Positions 4,276 to 28,692 of a stretch of 64,000 bases of DNA are shown here, one piece after another; position 1 is the first letter of the stretch, and every line of letters begins with the position of its first letter. Source of the DNA: Rossellomorea sp. y25 (GTDB lineage: Bacteria; Bacillota; Bacilli; Bacillales; Bacillaceae_B); assembly GCF_038049935.1 (NCBI RefSeq), contig NZ_CP145886.1, positions 2,488,501 to 2,552,500 of the forward strand, in the 5' to 3' direction. A program made the position numbers and the translations under genes. The notes under the pieces were generated by a model, which saw nothing but the letters and a program-made list of their open reading frames with translations, searched no databases and had not been told where the DNA came from.

Positions 4276-4995
4276 TTACGATTTAGATGGTGGAACATCG
4301 CATCCATTTTCATCACAAGCCATCCCCTCAGCTCCAAGAGGTTGTAGTGGTGAAGCTTCATTTTCCTCCTCCCAAACTTTTTGGATGGAATTCAAGAAAA
4401 CGTCACTTGGCTGCGCACCTGAAATAGCGTATTTACGGTTAATCACAAAGAATGGTACACCTTGTACTCCAATTTGTCTTGCTTGTTCTTCATCAGTTCG
4501 GACATCTTGAGAGAAGTCACTGCCTTCTAAAACAGCTTTTGATTCTATTTCCTCTAATCCGGCTTGTTTCGCTAATCCTAACAGAGTTTCCTTGTCACCA
4601 ATATGCTTTGAAAGAGTAAAGTGAGCGTGTAACAGTATTTCAGTAAGCTCTGCTTCCTTCCCCTTCGTTTCCGCATATTTTGTCAGGCGATGGGCGTCGA
4701 AAGTATTCGTCGGAATACTGGTATCAAAACGAAAATCCAGACCAACGGTTGCCGCTTGCTGCGTCATGCTGTCTGTCATGTTTTTTGCTTGTTCAAGAGA
4801 CGTACCATACTTTTTTGAAAGAATTTCTTGAATACTCATTTCTGTATGGACTGGCGCATTGGGATCTAGCTCAAAGCTTTTAAACACAATGTCAACTTGA
4901 TCTCTTTGAGGGAATTGTTGAAGCGCTTCTTCTAAATGGCGTTTTCCTATATAACAAAATGGACATACATAATCTGACCAAATTTCAATTTTCAT
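4276..4995 (-). CDS. DsbA-family thioredoxin-fold oxidoreductase, FrnE-like
   Basis: This 239-residue protein has a thioredoxin-fold active site near the N-terminus (SDYVCPFCYIGKR, CPFC) and the GVQGVPFFVINRKYAISGAQ block typical of FrnE/YwbO-type 2-hydroxychromene isomerase/DsbA-like proteins. There is no signal peptide, so it is probably a cytosolic dithiol oxidoreductase or isomerase. A GTG at 5004 is in frame, but it is part of the AGAGGTG ribosome site. ATG at 4995 is properly spaced from it and is the preferred start. Confidence 0.88.
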   Translation of the reverse strand: MKIEIWSDYVCPFCYIGKRHLEEALQQFPQRDQVDIVFKSFELDPNAPVHTEMSIQEILSKKYGTSLEQAKNMTDSMTQQAATVGLDFRFDTSIPTNTFDAHRLTKYAETKGKEAELTEILLHAHFTLSKHIGDKETLLGLAKQAGLEEIESKAVLEGSDFSQDVRTDEEQARQIGVQGVPFFVINRKYAISGAQPSDVFLNSIQKVWEEENEASPLQPLGAEGMACDENGCDVPPSKS

Positions 4996-5070
4996 CCTAT
5001 ACACCTCTATTTACATTTTCAATTCATATCTGATCGTATCATAAATCATGCATTCCTCCTTATGATTTGC

Positions 5071-7659
5071 TCATGAATTCGAATAAGGAGGCCTTCTTCT
5101 CGTTCTTCTTTTTACTCTGGCTGCATGGCACCGATCACATATAGGAAACCCAAAGTTTGGAGGGAGTTTCTTTCCACATTGTTTACACGTTTGAGTCATA
5201 CTGGTGACCTCTGTTCTGAGACTTTCGTGTACTCCATCAGCGATTTCACTTCGAATTCGCTCCCAGTAATATGCCTCTGTTTGTCTACCTAAACGATATA
5301 AGAACAAGAGATGCAGACCAACAGCCTTATAGGAAACCTCTTTTTGTTCCAGGTTTTTATTCTTAATAGCTGGTTCCGGTAATTCTTCTCCGTGTACAAT
5401 GGCGTACATACACTCTAACCACTGCTCAGTTAACTGAGCCTCTTTTTTCGAAAAGGGAAGATGTAAAAAACCGTACAGATCATTTAATGTTAGCTTCGCC
5501 TCAATATCGGTCCCACGGATTAATTCATATAGCTCTTTTTCTTCGTATAGAGTAGCTTTCTCTGTTCCGTAAGGACTTTTGAATTTCTCCCATAAATAGA
5601 AAAACGTGTCAAGGTCATGGTAATAGCGTTGAAAACGTTCAAACACACCACTTGTCGGTGCGATGGCGAATGTTTCGAGAGAGCGATCGGGCTGATCCAA
5701 AAGTTCTTTCATCACTTTAATATCCTTTGTGAAAGCGACTTTCCCTTCATTATAAAGACCTTTTCTACCAGCACGGCCTGCAATCTGCTTTACTTCCTGG
5801 GATGTCAGCCTTCTCCTTCTCGTTCCGTCAAATTTATCGGTTTCCAGGAATACGATTCTTCGTATCGGTAAATTTAAACCCATTCCAATTGCATCTGTTG
5901 CTACAATCATGTTCGTTTTCCCTTTAATAAATTGCATCATTTGTCTCTTTCTTGTTTCAGGAGGCATGCTACCGTAGATCATGCTCACTTTATGACCATT
6001 ATTTTGCAACCTTGAAGCTGTATCTAATACTTTCTTCCGGGAAAAGCAAACGAGAGCATCCCCTTTTTTCGCATGCCGCAGTTGAAATTCTTTTGATTCG
6101 ACTTGCAGTGGAATTTCTCTTTTATAATTATGAACCTCGATGTTCCCTTCTCCGACTAATTCCAAAAGCAGCTCTCGAACGTTTTCACTCCCGATGATAT
6201 GGACCTCTTTCGCCCTCGCTTTCGTAATGGCACGGTACCAAGAGAAACCTCTATCCTGATCGGCCAGCATTTGAGCTTCGTCAATAACAATCACTTCATA
6301 TTCGTCTTTTTCACGAAACATTTCAACTGTGGAGGAAGTATGTTTTGCATTAAAAACCTCTTTTTCCTCTTCTCCTGTTTTCAGATTACAAGGTACTCCA
6401 TCAGCATTTAATGTATCAAATACCTCCAGTGCCAGAAGTCTGAGTGGGGCCAAATACATGCCGCTATCGGCTTCTTTCATCCGGCTGATGGCATGATGGG
6501 TTTTCCCTGTATTGGTTTCCCCAATGTGGAGAATATACTTGATATCACCCCGAAATGAAGGACTGTACTCCCTTCCGAATATATCTTCCAGCATTCGCTG
6601 CTCTTCTTCTAGCTTCCGTTTTAACTCCGCTAACTCAGCAGCCTTTCTCTTCTCCCGCTCTTTTATGTCTCTTTCGTAAATGGAAAGGTGCATTTTCTCA
6701 TCAAATGGATATTCTATAAGTTTGAATAAATCCACGACATACTCCTCTTGAATCATGGTGAAAAAGGTTGATTTCAACGTCAGGAGAAAATGGTGACTAA
6801 GTCTGCTCAAGCGTTCTTCTGATAACTGTTGACCGAATATTTTAACGTAATCCGTCAATAATTTTTCCGGCATTTGATCAAGAAGAGAGCGATATACAAC
6901 TTGCTCTGAATAATAGAATACGAATCGTTCGTATGGATAGAAATAGGTTTCATATTCCCACACATGCCCATCCCAGTTCTCGCTCTTCTTGTGAATGGAG
7001 CCGGTAAATTCCTTAAGAAAGTCAGATACCGTTGTAAAGGAATCACTGGTGAATTTCCCTTCATCTTCCAGTTTTTCTTCCAGCATATATGGTTCCGTAT
7101 GTCGGAATTTTGTTTTTGTTCCTAAATCATGTATAAATTTCTTTGCAAATAAATACCGTAACTCCACATACCAATGTAGCTCAAACTCTTCCATTTGAGT
7201 GTTTATGAAGGAGATGATTTCTTTTTGGATATCTTTTTGGAGTGCTGCCTGTTTTTTTTCTTCAATTTTTTTCAGATAATTTTCTCTTACATGTTGATGG
7301 CGCCCTTTCCACGCGTCTGCTGAAGGTGGATTTTCGTTTAACCAGTTCAAAATATGAAATGGCTCAAAATCTCTAATTTCATTGCGAAATAATTTGTTTA
7401 TCAGTTTCTTATCTGTCCCCTCGATATCATAGCCTTTCTTTCTTAAAAAGGCTTTTTTATGGCTCCTAAGAACATCGTTGGTTACTTTGTTAAGCCAGAT
7501 ATTCGTCCAGATTTGGTGAAAGAAGGCACTTCTTTCACTAACATACTCCCTGAATGAAGGACAATTTTCATGTTTCTCTAAGTAAAGTGTGATATCATCT
7601 TCTATTTTTCGTTTTGTTTCCTCTATGGCTTCTTCTCTAAGTATGTGAAGGTTTTGCAC
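5071..7659 (-). CDS. SUV3-like superfamily 2 RNA helicase with C-terminal zinc ribbon
   Basis: This 862-residue protein carries a long N-terminal helical region without a recognised domain (about 1-360). A helicase core follows with motif I GETNTGKTHHA (380-390), motif II DEAQ (460-463), and the motif VI region QIAGRAGRKG. The C-terminus holds CKQCGKK...CDRCHAARVKRRTRRR, a four-cysteine zinc ribbon followed by a basic tail. DEAQ and the QIAGRAGR block are typical of the SUV3 mitochondrial/bacterial RNA helicase group. The substrate is inferred to be RNA. The start is GTG at 7659 behind AAAGGGG. It is a stand-alone gene. Confidence 0.82.
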   Translation of the reverse strand: MQNLHILREEAIEETKRKIEDDITLYLEKHENCPSFREYVSERSAFFHQIWTNIWLNKVTNDVLRSHKKAFLRKKGYDIEGTDKKLINKLFRNEIRDFEPFHILNWLNENPPSADAWKGRHQHVRENYLKKIEEKKQAALQKDIQKEIISFINTQMEEFELHWYVELRYLFAKKFIHDLGTKTKFRHTEPYMLEEKLEDEGKFTSDSFTTVSDFLKEFTGSIHKKSENWDGHVWEYETYFYPYERFVFYYSEQVVYRSLLDQMPEKLLTDYVKIFGQQLSEERLSRLSHHFLLTLKSTFFTMIQEEYVVDLFKLIEYPFDEKMHLSIYERDIKEREKRKAAELAELKRKLEEEQRMLEDIFGREYSPSFRGDIKYILHIGETNTGKTHHAISRMKEADSGMYLAPLRLLALEVFDTLNADGVPCNLKTGEEEKEVFNAKHTSSTVEMFREKDEYEVIVIDEAQMLADQDRGFSWYRAITKARAKEVHIIGSENVRELLLELVGEGNIEVHNYKREIPLQVESKEFQLRHAKKGDALVCFSRKKVLDTASRLQNNGHKVSMIYGSMPPETRKRQMMQFIKGKTNMIVATDAIGMGLNLPIRRIVFLETDKFDGTRRRRLTSQEVKQIAGRAGRKGLYNEGKVAFTKDIKVMKELLDQPDRSLETFAIAPTSGVFERFQRYYHDLDTFFYLWEKFKSPYGTEKATLYEEKELYELIRGTDIEAKLTLNDLYGFLHLPFSKKEAQLTEQWLECMYAIVHGEELPEPAIKNKNLEQKEVSYKAVGLHLLFLYRLGRQTEAYYWERIRSEIADGVHESLRTEVTSMTQTCKQCGKKLPPNFGFPICDRCHAARVKRRTRRRPPYSNS

Positions 7660-7839
7660 GGTAAGACCCCTTTATACGTTTTACAAATTATCTTAATATG
7701 TACTTTATAGTGTATGTATTTCTTCTCGATCTAACAATTCTCATGCTTACAAATAGTTCATTATAGCATAGAAGCTGCCCCTGAATGCGGATAAATTGAA
7801 CCAGAAGTATACATGGCCCCATTGATAAGGGCCTGCATT

Positions 7840-8286
7840 TTAGGTCACTTCTCTCTCGATTGCTTCTCCAACCGCTTCAGTTAGCTCCCTTGTGAGCTCT
7901 TGGACCATTTTATCAAATGTAGATTCAAGGATTTTAGCCAGTGAACTTGAGGATTCAATCTTTAAACATCCAGTCATAGCCGTATTGGAAGAGTTTACTT
8001 TTTCAGCTTTAAAAAAGCCTACACCAGTAAACTTTTGATTGATCCCACTTAATATAAACTTCACATGAGATGGTTCCTTCCAATCTGTAATAAGTACTTT
8101 CACATGAACCCTTTTGCTCACCACCCCATAATGAATGGTGAATTTCCACGTCGATTGAACGCCAGAAACAATGGAATGCTCCTTGTATCCATGAACAAGA
8201 GGAGCCCATGCATTCATATCACGAATGAATTCCCATACATGTGATTGTGAAGCATGTACGTTAACATGATGAATTCCCCGTACCAT
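7840..8286 (-). CDS. SRPBCC (START-like) family protein, CoxG-like
   Basis: This 148-residue protein has the SRPBCC helix-grip pattern: an N-terminal strand (HHVNVHASQSHVWEFIRDMNAWAPL), a middle run of alternating strands, and a long C-terminal helix (ILESTFDKMVQELTRELTEAVGEAIERE). It most resembles CoxG-like ligand-binding proteins; the ligand is unknown. The start at 8286 is chosen because AAGGAGGGGG lies just upstream. A longer frame to 8370 would put that site inside the gene. No functional partner is adjacent. Confidence 0.75.
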   Translation of the reverse strand: MVRGIHHVNVHASQSHVWEFIRDMNAWAPLVHGYKEHSIVSGVQSTWKFTIHYGVVSKRVHVKVLITDWKEPSHVKFILSGINQKFTGVGFFKAEKVNSSNTAMTGCLKIESSSSLAKILESTFDKMVQELTRELTEAVGEAIEREVT

Positions 8287-8367
8287 CAGAGTGACCCCCT
8301 CCTTATTAAATGAGATATCCGTGAATAGTATGAAGGGGTTGATGGTATTATGACTGATTGGAGTAGA

Positions 8368-8396
8368 CAAAAAAAGAAGCTTCGCTACGAAGCCTC
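8368..8396 (-). terminator. Terminator after the YsaA-like HAD gene
   Basis: On the minus strand AGGCTTCG-TAG-CGAAGCTT is followed by CTTTTTTT, immediately after the HAD gene stop. Confidence 0.85.
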
Positions 8397-9185
8397 TTAT
8401 TCCATATTATTTACGATTTCGAGTACTTCATAGAGCTCTTTAATTTCATAATCAGGTACAAGATCTTGAACTGTTTTCTGACCGCGATTAATCCAAACCG
8501 TTTTTATTCCTAGTCTAGAGGCCCCAAGTATGTCTGTATTTAAATTATCTCCTACCATGATCACTTCGTCCTTTTGAAGCTTAAGCCTCTCTAATGCATG
8601 AAGGAACATCGCGGAATCTGGTTTTCCTTTACCGATATTTCCTGAGATGATAATTTCTTCAAAGTAAGGCACAAGTTCAGGAGTCTTATCAAGTTTTGTA
8701 TTCTGTAAATGGGGAGAGCCATTCGTTAATAACAATAGTTGAAAATTCCCCTTCACTTCATTTAATACACGAAAGGTATCTTCATACACGTAAGGTCTAT
8801 CCTTTCTTTCTTTACGAAATCGCTCGGATAATTCCGCACCAAGCTCTACATCCGTAATGCCTAAAGATTGCAACCCAGACGTCCAAGCCTTTTTGCGGTA
8901 TGTAGGAACGATTTCTTTCATCTTAAGGAAGCCTTCATCATGCTCATCCAGAAAGTCTCCCCAAAGTCCTTCAAAGGGATTAATACCGATATTTTGTGTA
9001 AACTCATATGTATCATAGGTTTCATACAACTTTCTCGCAGCATCTCTAACACTAAGCTCTAGGCTTTTCGAATCTACCCCCACTTTCGCCTCTGCATAAC
9101 GGCAAGTTGCTTTAAACGCTTCTTCAATACTTTTGGAGTCCCATAATAATGTGTCATCCAAATCAAACATGATGGCTTTGATCAT
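8397..9185 (-). CDS. HAD-superfamily phosphatase, YsaA-like
   Basis: This 262-residue protein has the four HAD motifs: DLDDTLLWD near residue 8, TNGSPH, the lysine in GKGKPD, and GDNLNTDI. A helical cap lies between motifs I and II. It is close in length and layout to Bacillus YsaA and to YjjG-type nucleotidases, which act on phosphomonoesters; the true substrate cannot be read from the sequence. The ATG follows AAAGAGGGGGAGAAG. It is a single gene with its own terminator. Confidence 0.85.
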   Translation of the reverse strand: MIKAIMFDLDDTLLWDSKSIEEAFKATCRYAEAKVGVDSKSLELSVRDAARKLYETYDTYEFTQNIGINPFEGLWGDFLDEHDEGFLKMKEIVPTYRKKAWTSGLQSLGITDVELGAELSERFRKERKDRPYVYEDTFRVLNEVKGNFQLLLLTNGSPHLQNTKLDKTPELVPYFEEIIISGNIGKGKPDSAMFLHALERLKLQKDEVIMVGDNLNTDILGASRLGIKTVWINRGQKTVQDLVPDYEIKELYEVLEIVNNME

Positions 9186-21630: not shown

Positions 21631-22407
21631 TTATAGTATATCGAGCCAGATTTTAATCGCTGTAGCCAGGATTAAAACGGCTAAAATCATTTGAAGAATC
21701 TTTGTATTCATTTTCTTTCCTGCCATAGCGCCCAGTGGAGATGCAATCAAACTAGCTACCACCATGATCATAGCGGGTAAATAGTCCACTTGACCCGTCG
21801 ATATCTTACCAATCGTTGATCCAATTGAAGATATCAACGTAATTGCCAGGGATGAGGCAATTGTCATTCTTGTCGGGATTTTAAGAACAACAAGCATGAT
21901 CGGAACCAACAGGAAAGCTCCGGCAGCACCAACGATGCCTGCTCCAATACCAACGATCAAAGCTAGTGTTGCAGATAACCATTTGTTAAATGTAACGTCC
22001 TCGAGTTTTACATCATCTATTCCTTTTTTTGGGATGAACATCATGATAGCTGCAATTAATGCAAGTATTCCATACACAATATTTATTCCAGCTTCACTCA
22101 TGAATTTAGATCCGTACCCGCCAATGAAGCTACCGATTAAAATACTCACTCCCATGTATGTGATAAGAGTTTTATTAAGATAGCCTCCTTTACGGTAAGC
22201 CCAAACCCCACCAAGTGTGGCAAAGAATACTTGAACTGCGCTAATACCTGAAACTTCGTGTGCAGTGAATGTTGCTACTCCAAGCATTGGTGGAATATAA
22301 AGGAGCATGGGATATTTAATAATGCTCCCCCCGATACCTACCATTCCTGATATATAAGAGCCGACAAATCCGATTAGAAAGATCGTAATAATAAAGGCCA
22401 AATCCAT
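21631..22407 (-). CDS. TauE/SafE family anion exporter
   Basis: This 258-residue protein has seven to eight transmembrane helices and the TauE/SafE (DUF81) repeats, e.g. [21 protein letters not shown] near the start and [16 protein letters not shown] in the second half. Family members export sulfite, thiosulfate or sulfoacetate. Its position just after a persulfide dioxygenase-like gene suggests sulfite or thiosulfate export. The ATG follows AGAGGAGGAACTACACG. A hairpin lies in the spacer to the upstream gene. Confidence 0.88.
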
Positions 22408-22436
22408 CGTGTAGTTCCTCCTCTTCTAGTAAAACA

Positions 22437-22457
22437 GGAACCTCTTTAGCAGGTTCC
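22437..22457 (-). other. Intergenic hairpin between the second rhodanese-MBL gene and tauE
   Basis: GGAACCT and AGGTTCC form a 7-bp stem without a T tract. It may be a processing or partial termination site that sets the ratio of the two transcripts. Confidence 0.45.
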
Positions 22458-22491
22458 CATTTTGATTATTTGTTTAGATTTGTACGATTGA

Positions 22492-23619
22492 TTAACGAAC
22501 AGCACAACGGTTTGGTCCAATTTCCATCTCACGCTGTTTCTCTTCATCCGGAGTTACTTTACCCATGTTTGTTTCACGAATTTCTTGATACGCGTTTGGC
22601 TGAGGTGGAAGGTTTTCAGATACCAGCTTTCTGAATTCTTCTTCGCTCTCGATATTTAAACCATGGTTTTTTGCAAATAATGTTCCCAGCTTTTCACCTA
22701 CAGATCCATCTTCATTCAATTCCTCAATAATCATAAAATGAGCCGGTAAAACGGTAAGCTCCATAGAAAGGTCTTTATATCGTTTGTATAGACTTTCTCT
22801 AAGATCAGCTACCCAATCTTCTGCTTTCCCGGCAAGATCCGGACGTCCGATACTGTCCACAAATAGAATGTCACCTGATAATAAATACTTTCCATCAATG
22901 ACAAATGACGTTGAACCGATTGTATGCCCCGGTGAGTAGAGAGCTGTGATATCTATCGTTGTATTTCCAATCACGACTTTATTCCCGTCTTCAAGTGCTG
23001 CATACTCAAAGGTAACTTCTTCAGCATCTTTAGGAGGTAACCAATAGGTAGCATTTGTTGCTTCTGCAATGTTACGTCCTCCAGAAATATGATCGGCATG
23101 CAAGTGAGTATCGAATATATTTGTAATCGTTGCGCCTTTTTCTTTTGCGAAATCGATAAAGATATCAGTCATACGAGTAGCATCGACGATCGCTGCTTCA
23201 CCATTTGACACGACCATATAGGATAGACAACCTTTACCTAAACGAACAAATTGATAAAGCTCCCCGCCATTTGTTAATTCACCCACTCTGACAGGCTCCA
23301 AATGTTCGCTCCAAGCTTTCATGCCGCCTTCAAGGTAAGAAACATCTTTCCCTTCATCTGAAAGCATTTCCGCTACCATCATAGAAGAACCTTCTTTCGC
23401 ACACACGACAAGAACGTCTTTATCCGTTGGAAGTTGATTCATTATTTCTTCTACACCATCTAAAAGATCGAAGTATGGGATGTTCAGATATTCAAATTTT
23501 GCACCTTCAATTTTCCAATCTTCAAAGGCATCTTCATTACGTACATCTAAAATGAATAAATCTTCTTTTTTCATTACTTTTTGTGCTACTTCTTTTGAAT
23601 TCATTGGTTTAACTGCCAT
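22492..23619 (-). CDS. Rhodanese-metallo-beta-lactamase fusion, persulfide dioxygenase-like (copy 2)
   Basis: This paralogue of the gene at 15434-16561 has the same 375-residue length, the same domain order and the same C-terminal NRCAVR. The rhodanese Cys is Cys73 ([10 protein letters not shown]). The metal site is [11 protein letters not shown] (His172, His174, Asp176, His177), with GHTIGSTSF and GRPDLAG downstream. It lies in a run of same-strand genes: cstR, tusA, dsrE, tusA-rhodanese, this gene, tauE. The predicted role is persulfide oxidation to sulfite, coupled to export by TauE. The ATG follows AGGGAGGTTAAATGA. Confidence 0.88.
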
Positions 23620-23651
23620 TCATTTAACCTCCCTGTATTTGTGGTATCATC

Positions 23652-24224
23652 TTACTTCACGTTCGATTCAACGTCTCCAGTCCAATCGCTCATACCTGGA
23701 ACTACATTGATTACATTAAGAAAACCTTTTTCAGCTAATAGTTGCGCCGCCATGTCGCTTCTGTTTCCTGTACGGCATACTACATAAATATCCTTGTCTT
23801 TATTAAGTTCATCCACTCGGGTTTCCAGTTCTCCCAGTGGCATTGAAATCGAGCCTGGAATATGTTTGAATGCATATTCGGCCTTTTCACGGACATCCAG
23901 TACGACGATATTTTCATCGCCTAGTTTAGTAGACAATGTTTCATTATCTGTTACTGACTCATGTTTACGCTCTACAGTCTCTTCCCCGCTTGATTTGCGG
24001 ACAAAATGTTTCAGAACATCTCCTTCTTCAATGGTTCCGAGATAATCGTGCCCGGAACTTTTTGCCCACGCTTGAAGATCGGCCTTTGATCCTTTGTCTG
24101 TTGCCTGAACTTCAATCACTTGGCCAGCTTCCAGGTTATTCATGGCCTTTTTTGTTTTTACAATCGGCATTGGACAAGCTAATCCCTTTGCATCCAATAC
24201 GAAATTTGATTCAATCGTGTTCAT
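23652..24224 (-). CDS. TusA-rhodanese fusion sulfurtransferase
   Basis: This 190-residue protein has an N-terminal TusA domain (about 5-75) with LDAKGLACPMPIVKTKKAM and its sulfur-carrying Cys. A C-terminal rhodanese domain (about 95-185) has YVVCRTGNRSDMAA. It should relay persulfide sulfur. The ATG at 24224 is set by GGAGG at the right spacing; the in-frame TTG at 24239 overlaps that site. A CstR-like half-palindrome lies immediately upstream. Confidence 0.88.
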   Translation of the reverse strand: MNTIESNFVLDAKGLACPMPIVKTKKAMNNLEAGQVIEVQATDKGSKADLQAWAKSSGHDYLGTIEEGDVLKHFVRKSSGEETVERKHESVTDNETLSTKLGDENIVVLDVREKAEYAFKHIPGSISMPLGELETRVDELNKDKDIYVVCRTGNRSDMAAQLLAEKGFLNVINVVPGMSDWTGDVESNVK

Positions 24225-24239
24225 ATATAAAACCTCCAA

Positions 24240-24255
24240 TTACCTTATAGGGTAT
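24240..24255 (-). promoter_or_regulatory. CstR-like operator before tusA-rhodanese
   Basis: On the minus strand ATACCCTATAAGGTAA resembles the other palindromes of the locus. No convincing -35/-10 pair is seen, so it may be an internal or weak site. Confidence 0.5.
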
Positions 24256-24273
24256 ATTTCATTGCAAAAAAAA

Positions 24274-24753
24274 TTAGATGAATAGGTTCACGTTACCATT
24301 TTCAGCATCCGCTAAATACGCAGCTACTCCAGCATACTCGATTTCCTCTAATAATTCGTCTTTGTGTAATCCTAATAAATCCATTGTCATGGTACACGCA
24401 ACCAATTTGATTTCTTGTTCCCTTGCCATATCAATTAAATCAGGTAAAGGCATAGCATTATGCTTCTTCATAACACCTTTGATCATTTTAGGGCCCATGC
24501 CCATGAAATTCATGTTTGATAATCCTAGTTTATCTGCGCCACGAGGCATCATCCCCCCAAACATTTTCTCCATAAATCCTTTTTTCACAGGCACCATCTC
24601 TTCTTTTCTTAAAGCATTCAGTCCCCAGAATGTATGGAAAATGGTTACGTCATGATCATAAGCTGCAGCCCCGTTCGCAATGATATATGCAGCCATCGCT
24701 TTATCGTAATCTCCACTAAAGAGAATAATATTGGTTGTTTTTCTTTCAGTCAT
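24274..24753 (-). CDS. DsrE/DsrF/DrsH-like family protein (DsrE2 type)
   Basis: This 159-residue protein has the DsrE-like fold blocks NIILFSGDYDKAMAAYIIANGAAA and VTIFHTFWGLNAL, and the conserved Cys in VACTMTMDLLGL. DsrE2-type proteins sit beside TusA and rhodanese genes and take part in sulfur transfer. The Met-rich loop FGGMMPRGADKLGLSNMNFMG is usual for the type. The ATG follows AGGAGGAGATACA. Confidence 0.88.
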   Translation of the reverse strand: MTERKTTNIILFSGDYDKAMAAYIIANGAAAYDHDVTIFHTFWGLNALRKEEMVPVKKGFMEKMFGGMMPRGADKLGLSNMNFMGMGPKMIKGVMKKHNAMPLPDLIDMAREQEIKLVACTMTMDLLGLHKDELLEEIEYAGVAAYLADAENGNVNLFI

Positions 24754-24802
24754 TGTATCTCCTCCTATTTACTGTAAGGGGTGTTGATCCCCTTAAAAAA
24801 AT

Positions 24803-25030
24803 TTAAACTTTTTTAATCCAGAATGTAAATACATCATTTTCTTCATTTGAATCGAGCAATTCATGTCCTGTAGATTTAGCCCAGGCTGTCAGGTCACTTT
24901 TAGCTCCTTTATCCGTTGTTTGAACCTCTAAAATTTGACCAGATTCAATTTCTTTTATTGCCTTTCTTGTTTTCACAATCGGCATTGGACAAGCTAATCC
25001 TTTAGCATCTAGTACTTTATCTGCGTTCAT
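24803..25030 (-). CDS. tusA: TusA-family sulfur carrier
   Basis: This 75-residue protein has the TusA motif LDAKGLACPMPIVKTRKAI, where the Cys carries the persulfide. It is nearly identical in this motif to the TusA domain of the fusion gene downstream. The promoter carries a perfect CstR-like palindrome. The ATG follows AGGAGGAATTATTA. Confidence 0.92.
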   Translation of the reverse strand: MNADKVLDAKGLACPMPIVKTRKAIKEIESGQILEVQTTDKGAKSDLTAWAKSTGHELLDSNEENDVFTFWIKKV

Positions 25031-25061
25031 TAATAATTCCTCCTAAGAATGATTGTTTCTA

Positions 25062-25077
25062 ATACCCACAAGGGTAT
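25062..25077 (-). promoter_or_regulatory. Perfect CstR-like palindrome upstream of tusA
   Basis: ATACCCACAAGGGTAT is a 16-base palindrome just downstream of a TTGACA/TATAAT-type promoter on the minus strand. It would overlap the transcription start. Confidence 0.75.
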
Positions 25078-25113
25078 ATTATATGATATAAAAAAAGATG
25101 TCAACTCTTTTCT

Positions 25114-25374
25114 TTATCGACTCTTAACTAATAAATTCACAGCTTCTTTTACAAGGTCTTCCGTATTTTCACCAGTCTCTTGTGAATCTCTTACGCATTC
25201 AACAAGATTCATACTGACAATTAAGCCTACGGAACGGTCAAGAGCTGTTTTTGCTGCGGAAAGTTGTGTAATAACGTCTTTACAATCTTCCCCTTGCTCC
25301 ATCATTCTTACGATTCCACGGAGCTGCCCTTCAACACGTTTAATTCGATTCTGAACTTGTGAATTGTATTCCAT
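25114..25374 (-). CDS. cstR: CstR-type persulfide-sensing repressor (CsoR/FrmR family)
   Basis: This 86-residue protein has the CsoR/FrmR helical fold (NRIKRVEGQLRGIVRMMEQG). Its two sensor cysteines are Cys31 and Cys60, the same numbers as in Staphylococcus CstR. At the position where copper-sensing CsoR has a His ligand before the second Cys, this protein has NLVEC, so a thiol/persulfide sensor is more likely than a copper sensor. ATG 25374 follows GGAGGTGTCTTT; an upstream extension is not supported. Its own promoter carries an operator, which implies autoregulation. Confidence 0.88.
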   Translation of the reverse strand: MEYNSQVQNRIKRVEGQLRGIVRMMEQGEDCKDVITQLSAAKTALDRSVGLIVSMNLVECVRDSQETGENTEDLVKEAVNLLVKSR

Positions 25375-25417
25375 AAAGACACCTCCTGTTGGCTTATTGT
25401 TTCTTGCTACAATTACA

Positions 25418-25446
25418 ATAATATACCCCGTTAGGTATAAAGTCAA
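25418..25446 (-). promoter_or_regulatory. cstR promoter with embedded operator
   Basis: On the minus strand TTGACT (25446-25441), 17 bases and TATTAT (25423-25418) form the promoter. ATACCTAACGGGGTAT (25438-25423) occupies the spacer. Confidence 0.78.
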
Positions 25447-26933: not shown

Positions 26934-26973
26934 AATAAAAATGACCGTTAGAGGAAATAGCCTAACGGTCATT
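26934..26973 (-). terminator. Terminator after the ArsA-type ATPase gene
   Basis: ATGACCGTTAG and CTAACGGTCAT form an 11-bp stem followed on the minus strand by TTTTATTTTT. Confidence 0.88.
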
Positions 26974-26995: not shown

Positions 26996-27955
26996 CTAAA
27001 TGCTTCGTTCACCTAAAAAAACTTCTTTTTGTAGATGGTCTACAAAATTTTCAAGATGCCGGATTGAACAGATATCTTCTTCTAGTAGTGGAATCCGATA
27101 TAACGTTTGGTTTGTAAACTTCTCCATCATCATCTTTAAATATAGCTTTTCCTGCTCTTTCCTTTTTTCCAAGAACTCTCCATCCGCCTGAATGGGCAGG
27201 ATCTTATTTATGATCAGTCCCCCTATATTCAATCCGTAATTGGACATCATTTCAATGGCCTTCTCAGTTTCAAGTATCGGGAGCCTTTCGGGAATGAGTA
27301 CGAAAATGAATCCTGTTCTTTTTTGATCCAGAAGAATCCCCCGTACTTTTGAGAACTTTTCACGACGCCTTTGCAGCACATCATAAATGGGATCTTCGAC
27401 CGGCTCCCCATCATTTAATAGTTGTGAATAATTCTTATTTGTTTTCTTTCGCCTTTCAAGCATCCCGTCCATCCATACTCCCATCAATTCGGGAAGGGAT
27501 AATAGTCGGATTGTGTGGCCTGTAGGGGCTGTGTCAAAGATGATTTTATCGAACTCATTTCCTTCTTCGAGAATGATGGAAACCATCCGATCAAATAATG
27601 CAGCTTCTTCTGCCCCGGGTGCCGAGGCAGCCATATCAATTTGACGGTGTACCTCATTCACCATTTTTGATTTAACCATTCCCTTTAAATTCCGTTTCAC
27701 TCCGTTGATATATCGCTGTGTTTCGATGTGTGGGTTTATTTCTATTCCCCATAGATTTTCAAGTAATGGCGTTTTATATTCCATGATCTCTTGATGGAAG
27801 ATATCACCTAAATTATGAGCAGGATCCGTTGAAATGATTAACGTCTTCTTCCCCATATTCGCAAACATTACGGCTAAAGCAGAGGCAGATGTTGATTTTC
27901 CTACTCCTCCTTTTCCTCCTACAAAAAGAATTTTCTGGTGTTGTAATTCATTCAT
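26996..27955 (-). CDS. ArsA/Get3-type ATPase
   Basis: This 319-residue ATPase has the deviant Walker A KGGVGKST (about 17-24), the switch I block STDPAHNLGD, and switch II FDTAPTGHTIRLLSLPELM. It has one ArsA unit, like Get3/TRC40, not the two-unit enzyme of classical arsenite pumps. It ends an operon that starts with a probable selenoprotein and a Cys-Cys-terminated protein, which points to soft-metal or thiol chemistry rather than tail-anchored protein insertion. Two ATGs (27961 and 27955) are possible; the second is better spaced from GAGGGGG. Confidence 0.85.
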   Translation of the reverse strand: MNELQHQKILFVGGKGGVGKSTSASALAVMFANMGKKTLIISTDPAHNLGDIFHQEIMEYKTPLLENLWGIEINPHIETQRYINGVKRNLKGMVKSKMVNEVHRQIDMAASAPGAEEAALFDRMVSIILEEGNEFDKIIFDTAPTGHTIRLLSLPELMGVWMDGMLERRKKTNKNYSQLLNDGEPVEDPIYDVLQRRREKFSKVRGILLDQKRTGFIFVLIPERLPILETEKAIEMMSNYGLNIGGLIINKILPIQADGEFLEKRKEQEKLYLKMMMEKFTNQTLYRIPLLEEDICSIRHLENFVDHLQKEVFLGERSI

Positions 27956-27978
27956 GTACATATCCCCCTCACTTTACT

Positions 27979-28248
27979 TCAACAACATCTGATGCCATCC
28001 AAGGGTGAGTGCTCCATTCCCATTCTTAAATGCCAATCATGAAATTTCTCTATTATATACGGATAAAGTTCCAATGTGTAATAAAAAACGGGATTCGGCA
28101 GGCCTAGCATATCTGAATAGAGCAATAATAAGAATAAATCATCCTCATCTCTTAATTCCCTTGCAATTTCCGTTTTATGAGGAAGGCGAATCATGTCATC
28201 GTAAAGCTGTATGATTCTTTTGAACTTTTCTTTCATAGACGAATCCAT
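27979..28248 (-). CDS. Small protein ending in Cys-Cys ('CC-star' type), operon partner of ArsA-type ATPase
   Basis: This 89-residue, largely helical, acidic protein ends ...LDGIRCC followed directly by the stop. I recall an NCBI family called cory-CC-star for small proteins ending in CC; assignment to it is tentative. The terminal cysteine pair could bind a soft metal or take part in disulfide exchange. The ATG at 28248 follows AAGGAGGGGAGCACGA. It is 14 bases after the candidate selenoprotein gene and 23 bases before the ATPase gene, so the three genes form one operon. Its stop is TGA; reading through would add only 11 residues after the Sec. Confidence 0.7.
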   Translation of the reverse strand: MDSSMKEKFKRIIQLYDDMIRLPHKTEIARELRDEDDLFLLLLYSDMLGLPNPVFYYTLELYPYIIEKFHDWHLRMGMEHSPLDGIRCC

Positions 28249-28262
28249 TCGTGCTCCCCTCC

Positions 28263-28634
28263 TTAAAGATGTCTCTGTAATGTGGCATGATAATTTAGAT
28301 TATCTTGTAGATAATGACCATTAATGAAAATAGCTTGTCTTTTAATTGAGAAGAGAAGGTAAAAAAAAGCTTTATATAGAGGTATATGCTTTCTTCTCAC
28401 CTGCCTCACCAAATAATAGATGATGGCCAAGAGATTTCTAGGGTCGCAGTATAGAATGGACACGGCCTCCCGATATTTTTCACTTGTTTCACAATAAAGT
28501 TTTCCAAGGGAACTTCTTTCGTGATGATGATGAGAGAAATCATGTTTCATTGTGATGAACCTGTCACCACTTACTCCACCACATCACCCCATGCCTACTT
28601 CAAGCTCTGAGCGAATCATTAGGACTTCTACCAT
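28263..28634 (-). CDS. Candidate selenoprotein with UCGG motif, head of the ArsA operon
   Basis: From ATG 28634 (behind AAGGAGGG, spacing 8) one frame of 123 residues runs to the stop at 28263 with a single TGA at codon 17 (28586-28584). The start reads MVEVLMIRSELEVGMG, then U-CGGVSGDRF, giving a UCGG motif like a CxxC or vicinal thiol site. Conventional calling would start at ATG 28550 (MKHDFSHHHHERSSLG), but that ATG lacks a ribosome site. The rest has Cys residues in KLYCETS and LYCDPRN and two hydrophobic segments (LLAIIYYLV, AFFYLLFSI). A SECIS-like hairpin follows the TGA. I do not recognise the family. Confidence 0.65.
28552..28570 (-). promoter_or_regulatory. Candidate SECIS hairpin of the UCGG gene
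   Basis: On the minus strand GTGGTGA and TCATCAC form a 7-bp stem (one G-U pair) around CAGGT. The loop begins after 20 nt from the TGA. The CAGGU loop repeats the CAGGU of the E. coli fdhF element. Confidence 0.6.
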
Positions 28635-28662
28635 ACATAATCCCTCCTTCAAAAGGATGTAG

Positions 28663-28692
28663 AAAAAGGGGACTCGAGCACGAGTCACCCTT
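28663..28692 (-). terminator. Terminator between cstA and the UCGG operon
   Basis: On the minus strand GGGTGACTCG-TGCT-CGAGTCCCC is followed by TTTTT. It ends only 16 bases before the ribosome site of the next gene. Confidence 0.82.

What the first reader, a model, noticed from the sequence alone, without database searches (positions are those of the whole stretch)
26996..28634. Three-gene operon: UCGG selenoprotein candidate, Cys-Cys-ending protein, ArsA-type ATPase
Seen: the first gene, if started at the ATG that has a proper ribosome site (28634), contains TGA in a U-C-G-G motif and continues in frame into what would otherwise be an ATG (28550) without a ribosome site. The next gene ends in Cys-Cys; the third is a one-unit ArsA/Get3 ATPase. 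Spacings are 14 and 23 bases. Inference: a vicinal selenol/thiol protein next to an ArsA-type ATPase recalls ArsD-ArsA, so this may be a soft-metal or organometal handling system that has not been described. It is my best candidate for a novel system in the window.
Basis: partly seen in the sequence, partly recalled or inferred. Interest (0 to 1): 0.95.

Follow-up and report, generated by a model that had tools for sequence, protein, structure and literature searches.

The report
New selenoprotein in CstA transporter operon
A small bacterial gene that databases cut short is very probably a selenium-containing protein of a family we found in no catalogue we searched, and it travels with a nutrient-transporter operon rather than with metal resistance.

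Summary
Confirmed and extended. Gene A (28634-28263, minus) has an in-frame TGA at codon 17 (GMG-U-CGG) and is very probably a real selenoprotein. The TGA is kept at the aligned position in 8 of 8 genus copies and 13 of 24 other order genomes with the gene; the other 11 have Cys. selA is over cut-off in 12 of those 13 and 0 of the 11. A hairpin after the TGA is kept in 19 of 19 distinct intact Sec copies aligned, with a C-G/G-C swap. Codons before the TGA are under purifying selection. The genome has selA, selB and tRNA-Sec. No NCBIfam, Pfam or 2026 review-table entry fits.

The metal reading is not supported. The module is CstA - gene A - cory-CC-star - ArsA (CstA and ArsA flank CC-star in 30 of 30 CC-star loci read); CstA-CstX-ArsA was proposed in 2010, the selenoprotein is the new part. 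ArsA lacks conserved cysteines.

Best reading: a thioredoxin-like Sec-Cys accessory of CstA-type (pyruvate-type) transport, acting on the Cys-Cys tail of CC-star or the one conserved CstA cysteine. That mechanism is inferred.

The parts
28263..28634 (-). Gene A ('UCGG protein'): 123-aa selenoprotein candidate, probably thioredoxin-like; Sec17-Cys18, highly conserved D64-P-R66-N67
28584..28586 (-). In-frame TGA read as selenocysteine (codon 17)
   Evidence: TGA in 8/8 genus copies and 13/24 other order genomes with the gene, Cys in 11/24
28552..28570 (-). SECIS-like hairpin GUGGUGA-CAGGU-UCAUCAC, starting 13 bases after the TGA
   Evidence: 99.2% of cells paired in 19 distinct sequences, outer pair C-G x9 / G-C x9 / unpaired x1; frozen codons. 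The window copy alone has A at the second loop base
28642..28649 (-). Ribosome-binding site AAGGAGGG for the upstream ATG
   Evidence: purine-rich sites before most listed relatives
28548..28550 (-). Later ATG where public annotation of close relatives starts (95-aa truncated proteins)
   Evidence: P0002-P0004
27979..28248 (-). Gene B: cory-CC-star protein (89 aa, ends Cys-Cys)
   Evidence: NF041419, 126 bits, cut-off 80
26996..27961 (-). Gene C: single-unit GET3/ArsA-family ATPase (321 aa)
   Evidence: TIGR00345, 287 bits; PF02374, 277 bits
28702..30444 (-). CstA-family transporter, upstream member of the module
   Evidence: PF02554, 501 bits; next to gene A in 22 of 23 named loci (the last cut by a contig end) and 14 of 15 fetched stretches
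28671..28686 (-). Terminator-like hairpin between cstA and gene A (possible partial terminator)
   Evidence: inverted sequence seen by eye at this place in several genus relatives
26940..26973 (-). Terminator-like hairpin after gene C

Best explanation
Gene A encodes a new bacterial selenoprotein family: a small, probably thioredoxin-like and cytoplasmic protein with a vicinal Sec17-Cys18 pair. It is an optional fourth member of the CstA - cory-CC-star - ArsA transporter module. SelB inserts Sec at the UGA through the hairpin just downstream; in the order, relatives without selA carry Cys-Cys instead (one exception, G405). Proposed action (inferred): the Sec-Cys pair exchanges with the C-terminal Cys-Cys of CC-star and/or the one conserved cysteine of CstA (C312), keeping the transporter or its ArsA coupling in the reduced, active state. 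The substrate is probably pyruvate or a similar small acid, by analogy with E. coli CstA-YbdD. Well supported here by sequence: selenoprotein gene, module membership, invariance of the vicinal pair. Inferred: fold-based redox role, location, target, substrate.
Against: G405 has the TGA but no selA found. The window copy itself is the only one of 19 with A instead of G at the second loop base (Gly25 to Arg), so its own hairpin departs from the consensus. Inside the genus selA is common without gene A (22 of 28), so co-occurrence there has no power. All Cys forms in the order sample lie in one family (two genera), so the Sec/Cys contrast may be a single event. Only one hairpin pair changes on both sides, G166 breaks it, shuffles ignore relatedness, and single-sequence folding favours other pairings in several copies. 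Foldseek gives no match below E 0.38 and the motif loop has pLDDT about 50. G166 has gene A away from CstA, 3 of 12 class-level stretches show no CstA, and the G021 copy is broken. The authors of PMC5847655 allow indirect effects, and a later CstA paper does not mention YbdD (PMC7730263, term search). No experiment shows Se, redox activity or substrate.
Confidence: 0.58

Rival explanations
1. Transporter assembly: ArsA acts Get3-like and CC-star plus gene A form a thiol-based chaperone that inserts, folds or couples CstA, without redox cycling or metal.
For: ArsA/GET3 family; constant linkage to a polytopic transporter; Castillo and Saier suggest CstX as linker between CstA and ArsA.
Against: Does not explain strict conservation of the vicinal pair or the upkeep of Sec; the CstA type in L148-L150, L152 and L155 has the Cys protein but no hit for the window's ArsA or CC-star in the stretches read.
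Confidence: 0.22
2. Soft-metal or organometal handling: the Sec-Cys protein is an ArsD-like metallochaperone that hands a metal(loid) to the ArsA ATPase.
For: Vicinal Sec-Cys plus, in the Cys forms of the order, a third Cys (CCGGxC) recalls ArsD's CC...C (recalled); thioredoxin-like topology of the model; an ArsA-family ATPase in the operon.
Against: Six ArsA proteins compared share no Cys; no PF06953 hit in 25 members up to E 10; no arsenic family in the lists shown for the other window proteins; the partner is CstA; Castillo and Saier report no arsenic genes in ArsA-CstA operons.
Confidence: 0.12
3. Reactive-sulfur link: the Sec-Cys protein is a persulfide relay or reductase joining CstA to sulfur detoxification.
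For: A CsoR-TusA-DsrE2 cluster follows the module in the window, in 6 of 6 named Rossellomorea-like loci and in G021; CsoR and DsrE2 genes also lie beside the second CstA type in L148.
Against: No CsoR, TusA or DsrE2 hit in the 17 Halobacillus loci, the 14 stretches outside the genus or the other 11 class-level stretches; a peptidase gene intervenes in Rossellomorea.
Confidence: 0.08
4. Ordinary gene starting at the later ATG; the upstream conservation is a regulatory leader.
For: Public annotation starts there.
Against: Codons 2-16 under purifying selection; upstream ribosome site in most relatives listed; Cys homologues translate straight through; the later ATG is absent in 3 of 19 relatives.
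Confidence: 0.03

Closest known systems
CstA-CstX-ArsA operons (Castillo and Saier 2010, PMC2963123)
   Same: CstA transporter, small CstX of about 90 aa and single-domain ArsA of about 330 aa in one operon; Bacillus halodurans and Oceanobacillus ArsA among their clusters
   Different: No fourth gene like gene A and no selenocysteine in the passages read; whether their CstX is cory-CC-star was not tested
cory-CC-star protein, NF041419
   Same: Gene B is a member by curated score
   Different: Gene A is not part of that model; no paper found by name
YbdD / DUF466 / KCU-star (NF033934)
   Same: Small protein, in E. coli next to cstA, ending Cys-Cys, or Cys-Sec in epsilonproteobacteria (PMC4607533); E. 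coli YbdD is reported as needed with CstA for pyruvate uptake (PMC5847655)
   Different: No detectable homology to gene A or gene B beyond the RCC tail; Sec at the C-terminus, here near the N-terminus
ArsD (PF06953) with ArsA
   Same: Small vicinal-cysteine protein encoded beside an ArsA ATPase
   Different: No sequence match; partner is CstA; ArsA lacks metal cysteines
Thioredoxin-like selenoproteins (SelW/T/H, Trx, Sao proteins)
   Same: Probable thioredoxin-like fold with Sec after the first strand
   Different: No CxxU/UxxC; Sec-Cys directly adjacent; conserved DPRN; no NCBIfam hit to gene A (one distant relative touches SelW/T/H far below cut-off)

Membership tests
Bacterial selenoprotein | In-frame UGA aligned with Cys in homologues | tested here: met
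Bacterial selenoprotein | Conserved SECIS hairpin shortly after the UGA with a G-bearing small loop | tested here: met
   (the bSECIS rule is recalled); loop CGGGU in most, CAGGU in the window copy, which departs from it; Rfam gave no SECIS match at E up to 10
Bacterial selenoprotein | SelA, SelB and tRNA-Sec in the genome | tested here: met
   for the own genome; G405 is an exception for selA among relatives
Bacterial selenoprotein | Selenium shown in the protein | not testable with these tools
   needs 75Se labelling or mass spectrometry
cory-CC-star (NF041419) | Curated score | tested here: met
   Gene B 126 bits, cut-off 80
TRC40/GET3/ArsA ATPase (TIGR00345) | Curated score | tested here: met
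   Gene C 287 bits, cut-off 135
Arsenical pump ATPase ArsA (TIGR04291) | Curated score; two units; metal cysteines | tested here: not met
   157 bits, cut-off 650, one unit; one non-conserved Cys
CstA-CstX-ArsA module | CstA and single-unit ArsA in one gene cluster | tested here: met
CstA-CstX-ArsA module | Small gene homologous to published CstX | not tested
   CstX sequences not fetched; position and size agree
ArsD | PF06953 match | tested here: not met
   0 of 25 members up to E 10 (the filters drop most weak matches)
DUF466/YbdD/KCU-star | NF033934 match | tested here: not met
   Gene B none up to E 10, while E. coli YbdD scores 70 bits, below the 85-bit cut-off; gene A none
Thioredoxin-like fold | Fold similarity | tested here: inconclusive
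Thioredoxin-like redox enzyme | CxxC, UxxC or CxxU active site | tested here: not met
   Adjacent Sec-Cys or Cys-Cys instead

The most novel reading that the evidence does not exclude
CstA-family transporters generally need a small partner with a vicinal Cys-Cys or Sec-Cys pair, met separately by YbdD/KCU-star (Cys-Cys or Cys-Sec tail), cory-CC-star (Cys-Cys tail) and this new thioredoxin-like family (Sec-Cys or Cys-Cys loop). Transport of a keto acid would then depend on thiol/selenol chemistry, either redox switching of the one conserved CstA cysteine or transient capture of the carbonyl. That would be a mode of transport control that I found described in no paper searched, with selenium recruited to it at least twice.
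Probability: 0.3. Interest if true: 0.92.

Novelty: new variant of a known kind. Interest (0 to 1): 0.8.

Why it matters
It adds a selenoprotein family in Bacillus-related bacteria that public annotation cuts short, and ties selenium to a transporter class with physiological work in E. coli. It also makes an open question testable: why do CstA transporters travel with small proteins carrying a vicinal Cys-Cys or Cys-Sec pair? Natural Sec and Cys versions of the same protein, in the same gene order, allow a direct comparison.

Tried and rejected
Metal-handling reading: tested by partners, ArsA cysteines and ArsD model; not supported. Homology of CC-star to YbdD: hhalign aligned only the last 8 residues (one YbdD sequence against a narrow profile). 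PDB sequence search with the gene A profile: only chance hits, best E 0.35. Rfam: no SECIS match. Neither VIA listing shows an ArsD structure among its 50 rows, which excludes nothing. Hypothetical protein DG of deep-Sep (motif GUxG) was considered: it is from Desulfosediminicola, and no NCBIfam model matched gene A; whether NF049953 is in that release was not checked. Sao selenoproteins (names recalled, then seen): no NCBIfam match. Phylum-wide sample: only the own genome of 398, although the protein search lists Gemmatimonadota and Gracilibacter relatives. The neighbouring CsoR/TusA/DsrE2 cluster was considered as part of the system and kept only as a weak rival: it follows the module in the Rossellomorea-like loci but was not hit in the Halobacillus loci or in the 14 stretches outside the genus; L148 has CsoR and DsrE2 genes beside its CstA. 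On rechecking I added that rival and moved the main confidence from 0.60 to 0.58 and assembly from 0.25 to 0.22.

The statement that gene A is not in print rests on searches (listings), passages or sections of papers and Table 1 of PMC13188914. The two Haft papers (PMC9879109, PMC12013261) are not held and were not read.

Full report
1. On the minus strand gene A begins at ATG 28634 behind AAGGAGGG, reads through TGA at 28586-28584 (codon 17) and ends at 28263; gene B is 28248-27979 and gene C 27961-26996. Gene B is the cory-CC-star protein NF041419 (126 bits, cut-off 80) and gene C a GET3/ArsA-family ATPase (287 bits, cut-off 135). Gene A matches no Pfam or NCBIfam family up to E 1; 25 aligned members show only scattered weak matches up to E 10, in at most 3 members each.

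2. Is the TGA selenocysteine? Homologues. The first protein search gave 8 proteins; 5 (three named Halobacillus, two unnamed) have Cys-Cys where gene A has TGA-Cys; 3 are 95-aa versions starting at the later ATG. In the genus (36 genomes, probably Rossellomorea by the named loci) 8 carry gene A and 8 of 8 have TGA there. In an order sample of 397 genomes, 27 from 13 genera carry it. Reading the sites: 16 have TGA (3 of the genus and 13 others, 11 genera in all) and 11 have Cys (2 genera). One genome, G050, was reported without stops because its match began late; its sequence shows the TGA.

3. Sec machinery. The own genome has selA (547 bits), selB (354 bits) and a tRNA-Sec with anticodon TCA. 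selA over cut-off: 8 of 8 TGA genomes and 22 of 28 others in the genus, so nothing can be learned there. Outside the genus: 12 of 13 TGA genomes and 0 of 11 Cys genomes (Fisher p 1e-5). The exception is G405, TGA without selA. The Cys genomes all lie in one family, two genera, so this is not 11 independent events. Seven control genomes without a listed gene A: selA over cut-off in 5.

4. Signal in the DNA. Before the TGA, codons 2-16 have pS 0.54 and pN 0.054 (ratio 0.10; 15 pairs of 6 genus sequences), so they are coding. After it, a 7-pair hairpin with a 5-base loop is kept in 19 distinct Sec sequences (the broken G021 copy, and G024, whose gene A protein is identical to that of G025, were left out): 99.2% of cells paired; the outer pair is C-G in 9, G-C in 9 and unpaired in 1 (G166); 0 of 500 shuffles reach the covariation score (0.237), and slid partners give at most 76.7% paired and 0.074. 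Only this one pair changes on both sides, and shuffles do not correct for relatedness. The window copy is the only one with A at the second loop base. The codons in the hairpin are frozen (GGG 18 of 18 glycines, TTC 19 of 19, ATC 19 of 19) while the two glycines just after the Sec-Cys use all four codons. In 28 Cys loci (some genomes counted twice through two collections) the longest uninterrupted stem near there is 3 to 7 pairs, 7 in one (the same script was not run on the Sec forms). Two far relatives with TGA have hairpins of different sequence, 9 and 7 pairs, loops GGT and GTC. Single-sequence folding favours a competing pairing in several sequences.

5. Cassette. All 23 named loci from one scan of a collection of 84,980 species genomes (6 with TGA from Rossellomorea or Bacillus sp., 17 with Cys from Halobacillus) have gene A, CC-star and ArsA; CstA is seen in 22, and the last is cut by a contig end. 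Of 15 stretches fetched (14 outside the genus, plus G021), 14 show CstA, gene A, CC-star, ArsA in this order; in G166 gene A stands elsewhere. CC-star itself occurs in 144 of 397 order genomes, including 27 of 27 with gene A and 117 of 370 without (the same draw assumed; p 2e-13). Of the 30 best CC-star loci read, 30 have CstA and ArsA beside it and 15 have gene A between CstA and CC-star. So CstA-CCstar-ArsA is the core and gene A an optional addition. In G036 no stop codon separates gene A from CC-star, so a fused protein is possible, but a ribosome-site-like sequence also precedes the CC-star start.

6. A wider family. A class-level search (398 genomes) found 12 genomes, 11 of them new, each of another genus. 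Twelve loci were read: SG-[C/U]-CGR, AACCVPF or similar at the site; TGA in one locus each of G435 and G438, Cys-Cys in the other ten. Of 12 stretches, 9 have a CstA beside the gene: three with CC-star and ArsA, one (57% identical CstA) without them, and five next to a second CstA type (36-38% identical) without them; 3 show no CstA. In two of the five a LytS-type sensor and a LytTR regulator lie upstream. In E. coli such a pair, BtsS/BtsR, senses pyruvate and drives btsT (PMC10653868, abstract start seen). The last protein search gives 173 proteins at E up to 1e-5, the best 120 listed, without Pfam domains in the list, among them Brevibacillus, Tepidibacillus, Gracilibacter and Gemmatimonadota. 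A phylum sample of 398 genomes gave only the own genome. Over 154 aligned rows the vicinal pair is present in 146 of 146 that reach it (Sec written as C), D64 and R66 in 154 of 154.

8. What it does. Known: E. coli CstA and YbdD together import pyruvate, and deletion of either lowers uptake, though the authors allow indirect effects (PMC5847655, passages); a later CstA paper does not mention YbdD (PMC7730263, term search). YbdD ends Cys-Cys and scores 70 bits against the KCU-star model, below its cut-off of 85; that family was reported as a selenoprotein with Cys-Sec at the C-terminus (PMC4607533, passages). Castillo and Saier proposed that ArsA energises CstA through CstX (PMC2963123, abstract, passages and section 3.2). 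Found here: one cysteine is invariant in 10 of 10 CstA proteins (window C312, ITIACGA), and six ArsA proteins share no cysteine. Inference: gene A is a Sec-Cys partner of the transporter, most simply an exchange partner of the CC-star tail or of C312. Where Sec is absent in the order, the Cys forms have CC and a further Cys three residues on (CCGGxC against UCGGxS), as if a thiol trio replaced the selenol.

9. Confidence by step: selenoprotein 0.93; member of the CstA module 0.9; thioredoxin-like fold 0.75; thiol/selenol exchange with CC-star or CstA 0.4; substrate pyruvate-like 0.5. The metal reading I put at 0.12.

10. Novelty. The 2026 review table of 119 prokaryotic selenoprotein families (PMC13188914, section 7 parts 1 and 2) lists no such protein; it has KCU-star/DUF466 and the Sao families. 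Text searches for CstA with selenocysteine, and for selenoprotein with carbon starvation protein, gave nothing relevant in the listings. Other papers seen as passages only: PMC9312934, PMC12013277. The two papers by Haft and colleagues are not held, so their text was not checked.

Noticed in passing
window 21631-25446, minus strand: CsoR-family repressor, two TusA-type genes (one fused to rhodanese), DsrE2, rhodanese/metallo-beta-lactamase-fold protein and a TauE-like permease (last name recalled): resembles persulfide-detoxification (cst-type) clusters (recalled). CsoR, TusA and DsrE2 also follow the module in the Rossellomorea-like loci.
   Followed up: partly
L148 (G545), 4332-8738: CsoR, DsrE2 and a rhodanese-type gene lie downstream of the second CstA type and its Cys-Cys protein, a second case of the sulfur cluster beside CstA.
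   Followed up: no
L101 (G021): Gene A copy with the TGA kept but a 12-base deletion through the hairpin and an in-frame TAG: a decaying copy in a genome that still has selA.
   Followed up: partly
window 28562: The window copy alone of 19 has A at the second loop base of the hairpin (Gly25 to Arg); whether this weakens Sec insertion is unknown.
   Followed up: no
L091 (G405): TGA form with an intact hairpin but no selA found in a genome listed as 99% complete: recent loss, a gap, or an unusual machinery.
   Followed up: no
L090:7764-8435 (G036): Gene A and CC-star in one frame with no stop between, giving a possible 224-aa fusion with Sec-Cys near the start and Cys-Cys at the end.
   Followed up: partly
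Halobacillus loci L044-L060: Cys forms carry a third cysteine (CCGGxC) where Sec forms have Ser, Ala or Thr.
   Followed up: partly
L148, L149, L150, L152, L155: A second CstA type with its own Cys-Cys partner of this family (AACCVPF, SCCGTF or QCCAAL), overlapping or directly after cstA, in L148 and L155 with LytS/LytTR genes upstream; no CC-star or ArsA hit.
   Followed up: partly
L041 and selA of G024: cstA, dsrE2 and selA each split between frames in one genome, which looks like sequencing errors.
   Followed up: no
L099 (G050): Gene A with an insertion of about 30 residues containing Cys-Cys just after the hairpin.
   Followed up: no
window 28671-28686: Terminator-like hairpin between cstA and gene A, with inverted sequences at this place in several genus relatives; may set the ratio of CstA to the accessory genes.
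   Followed up: no
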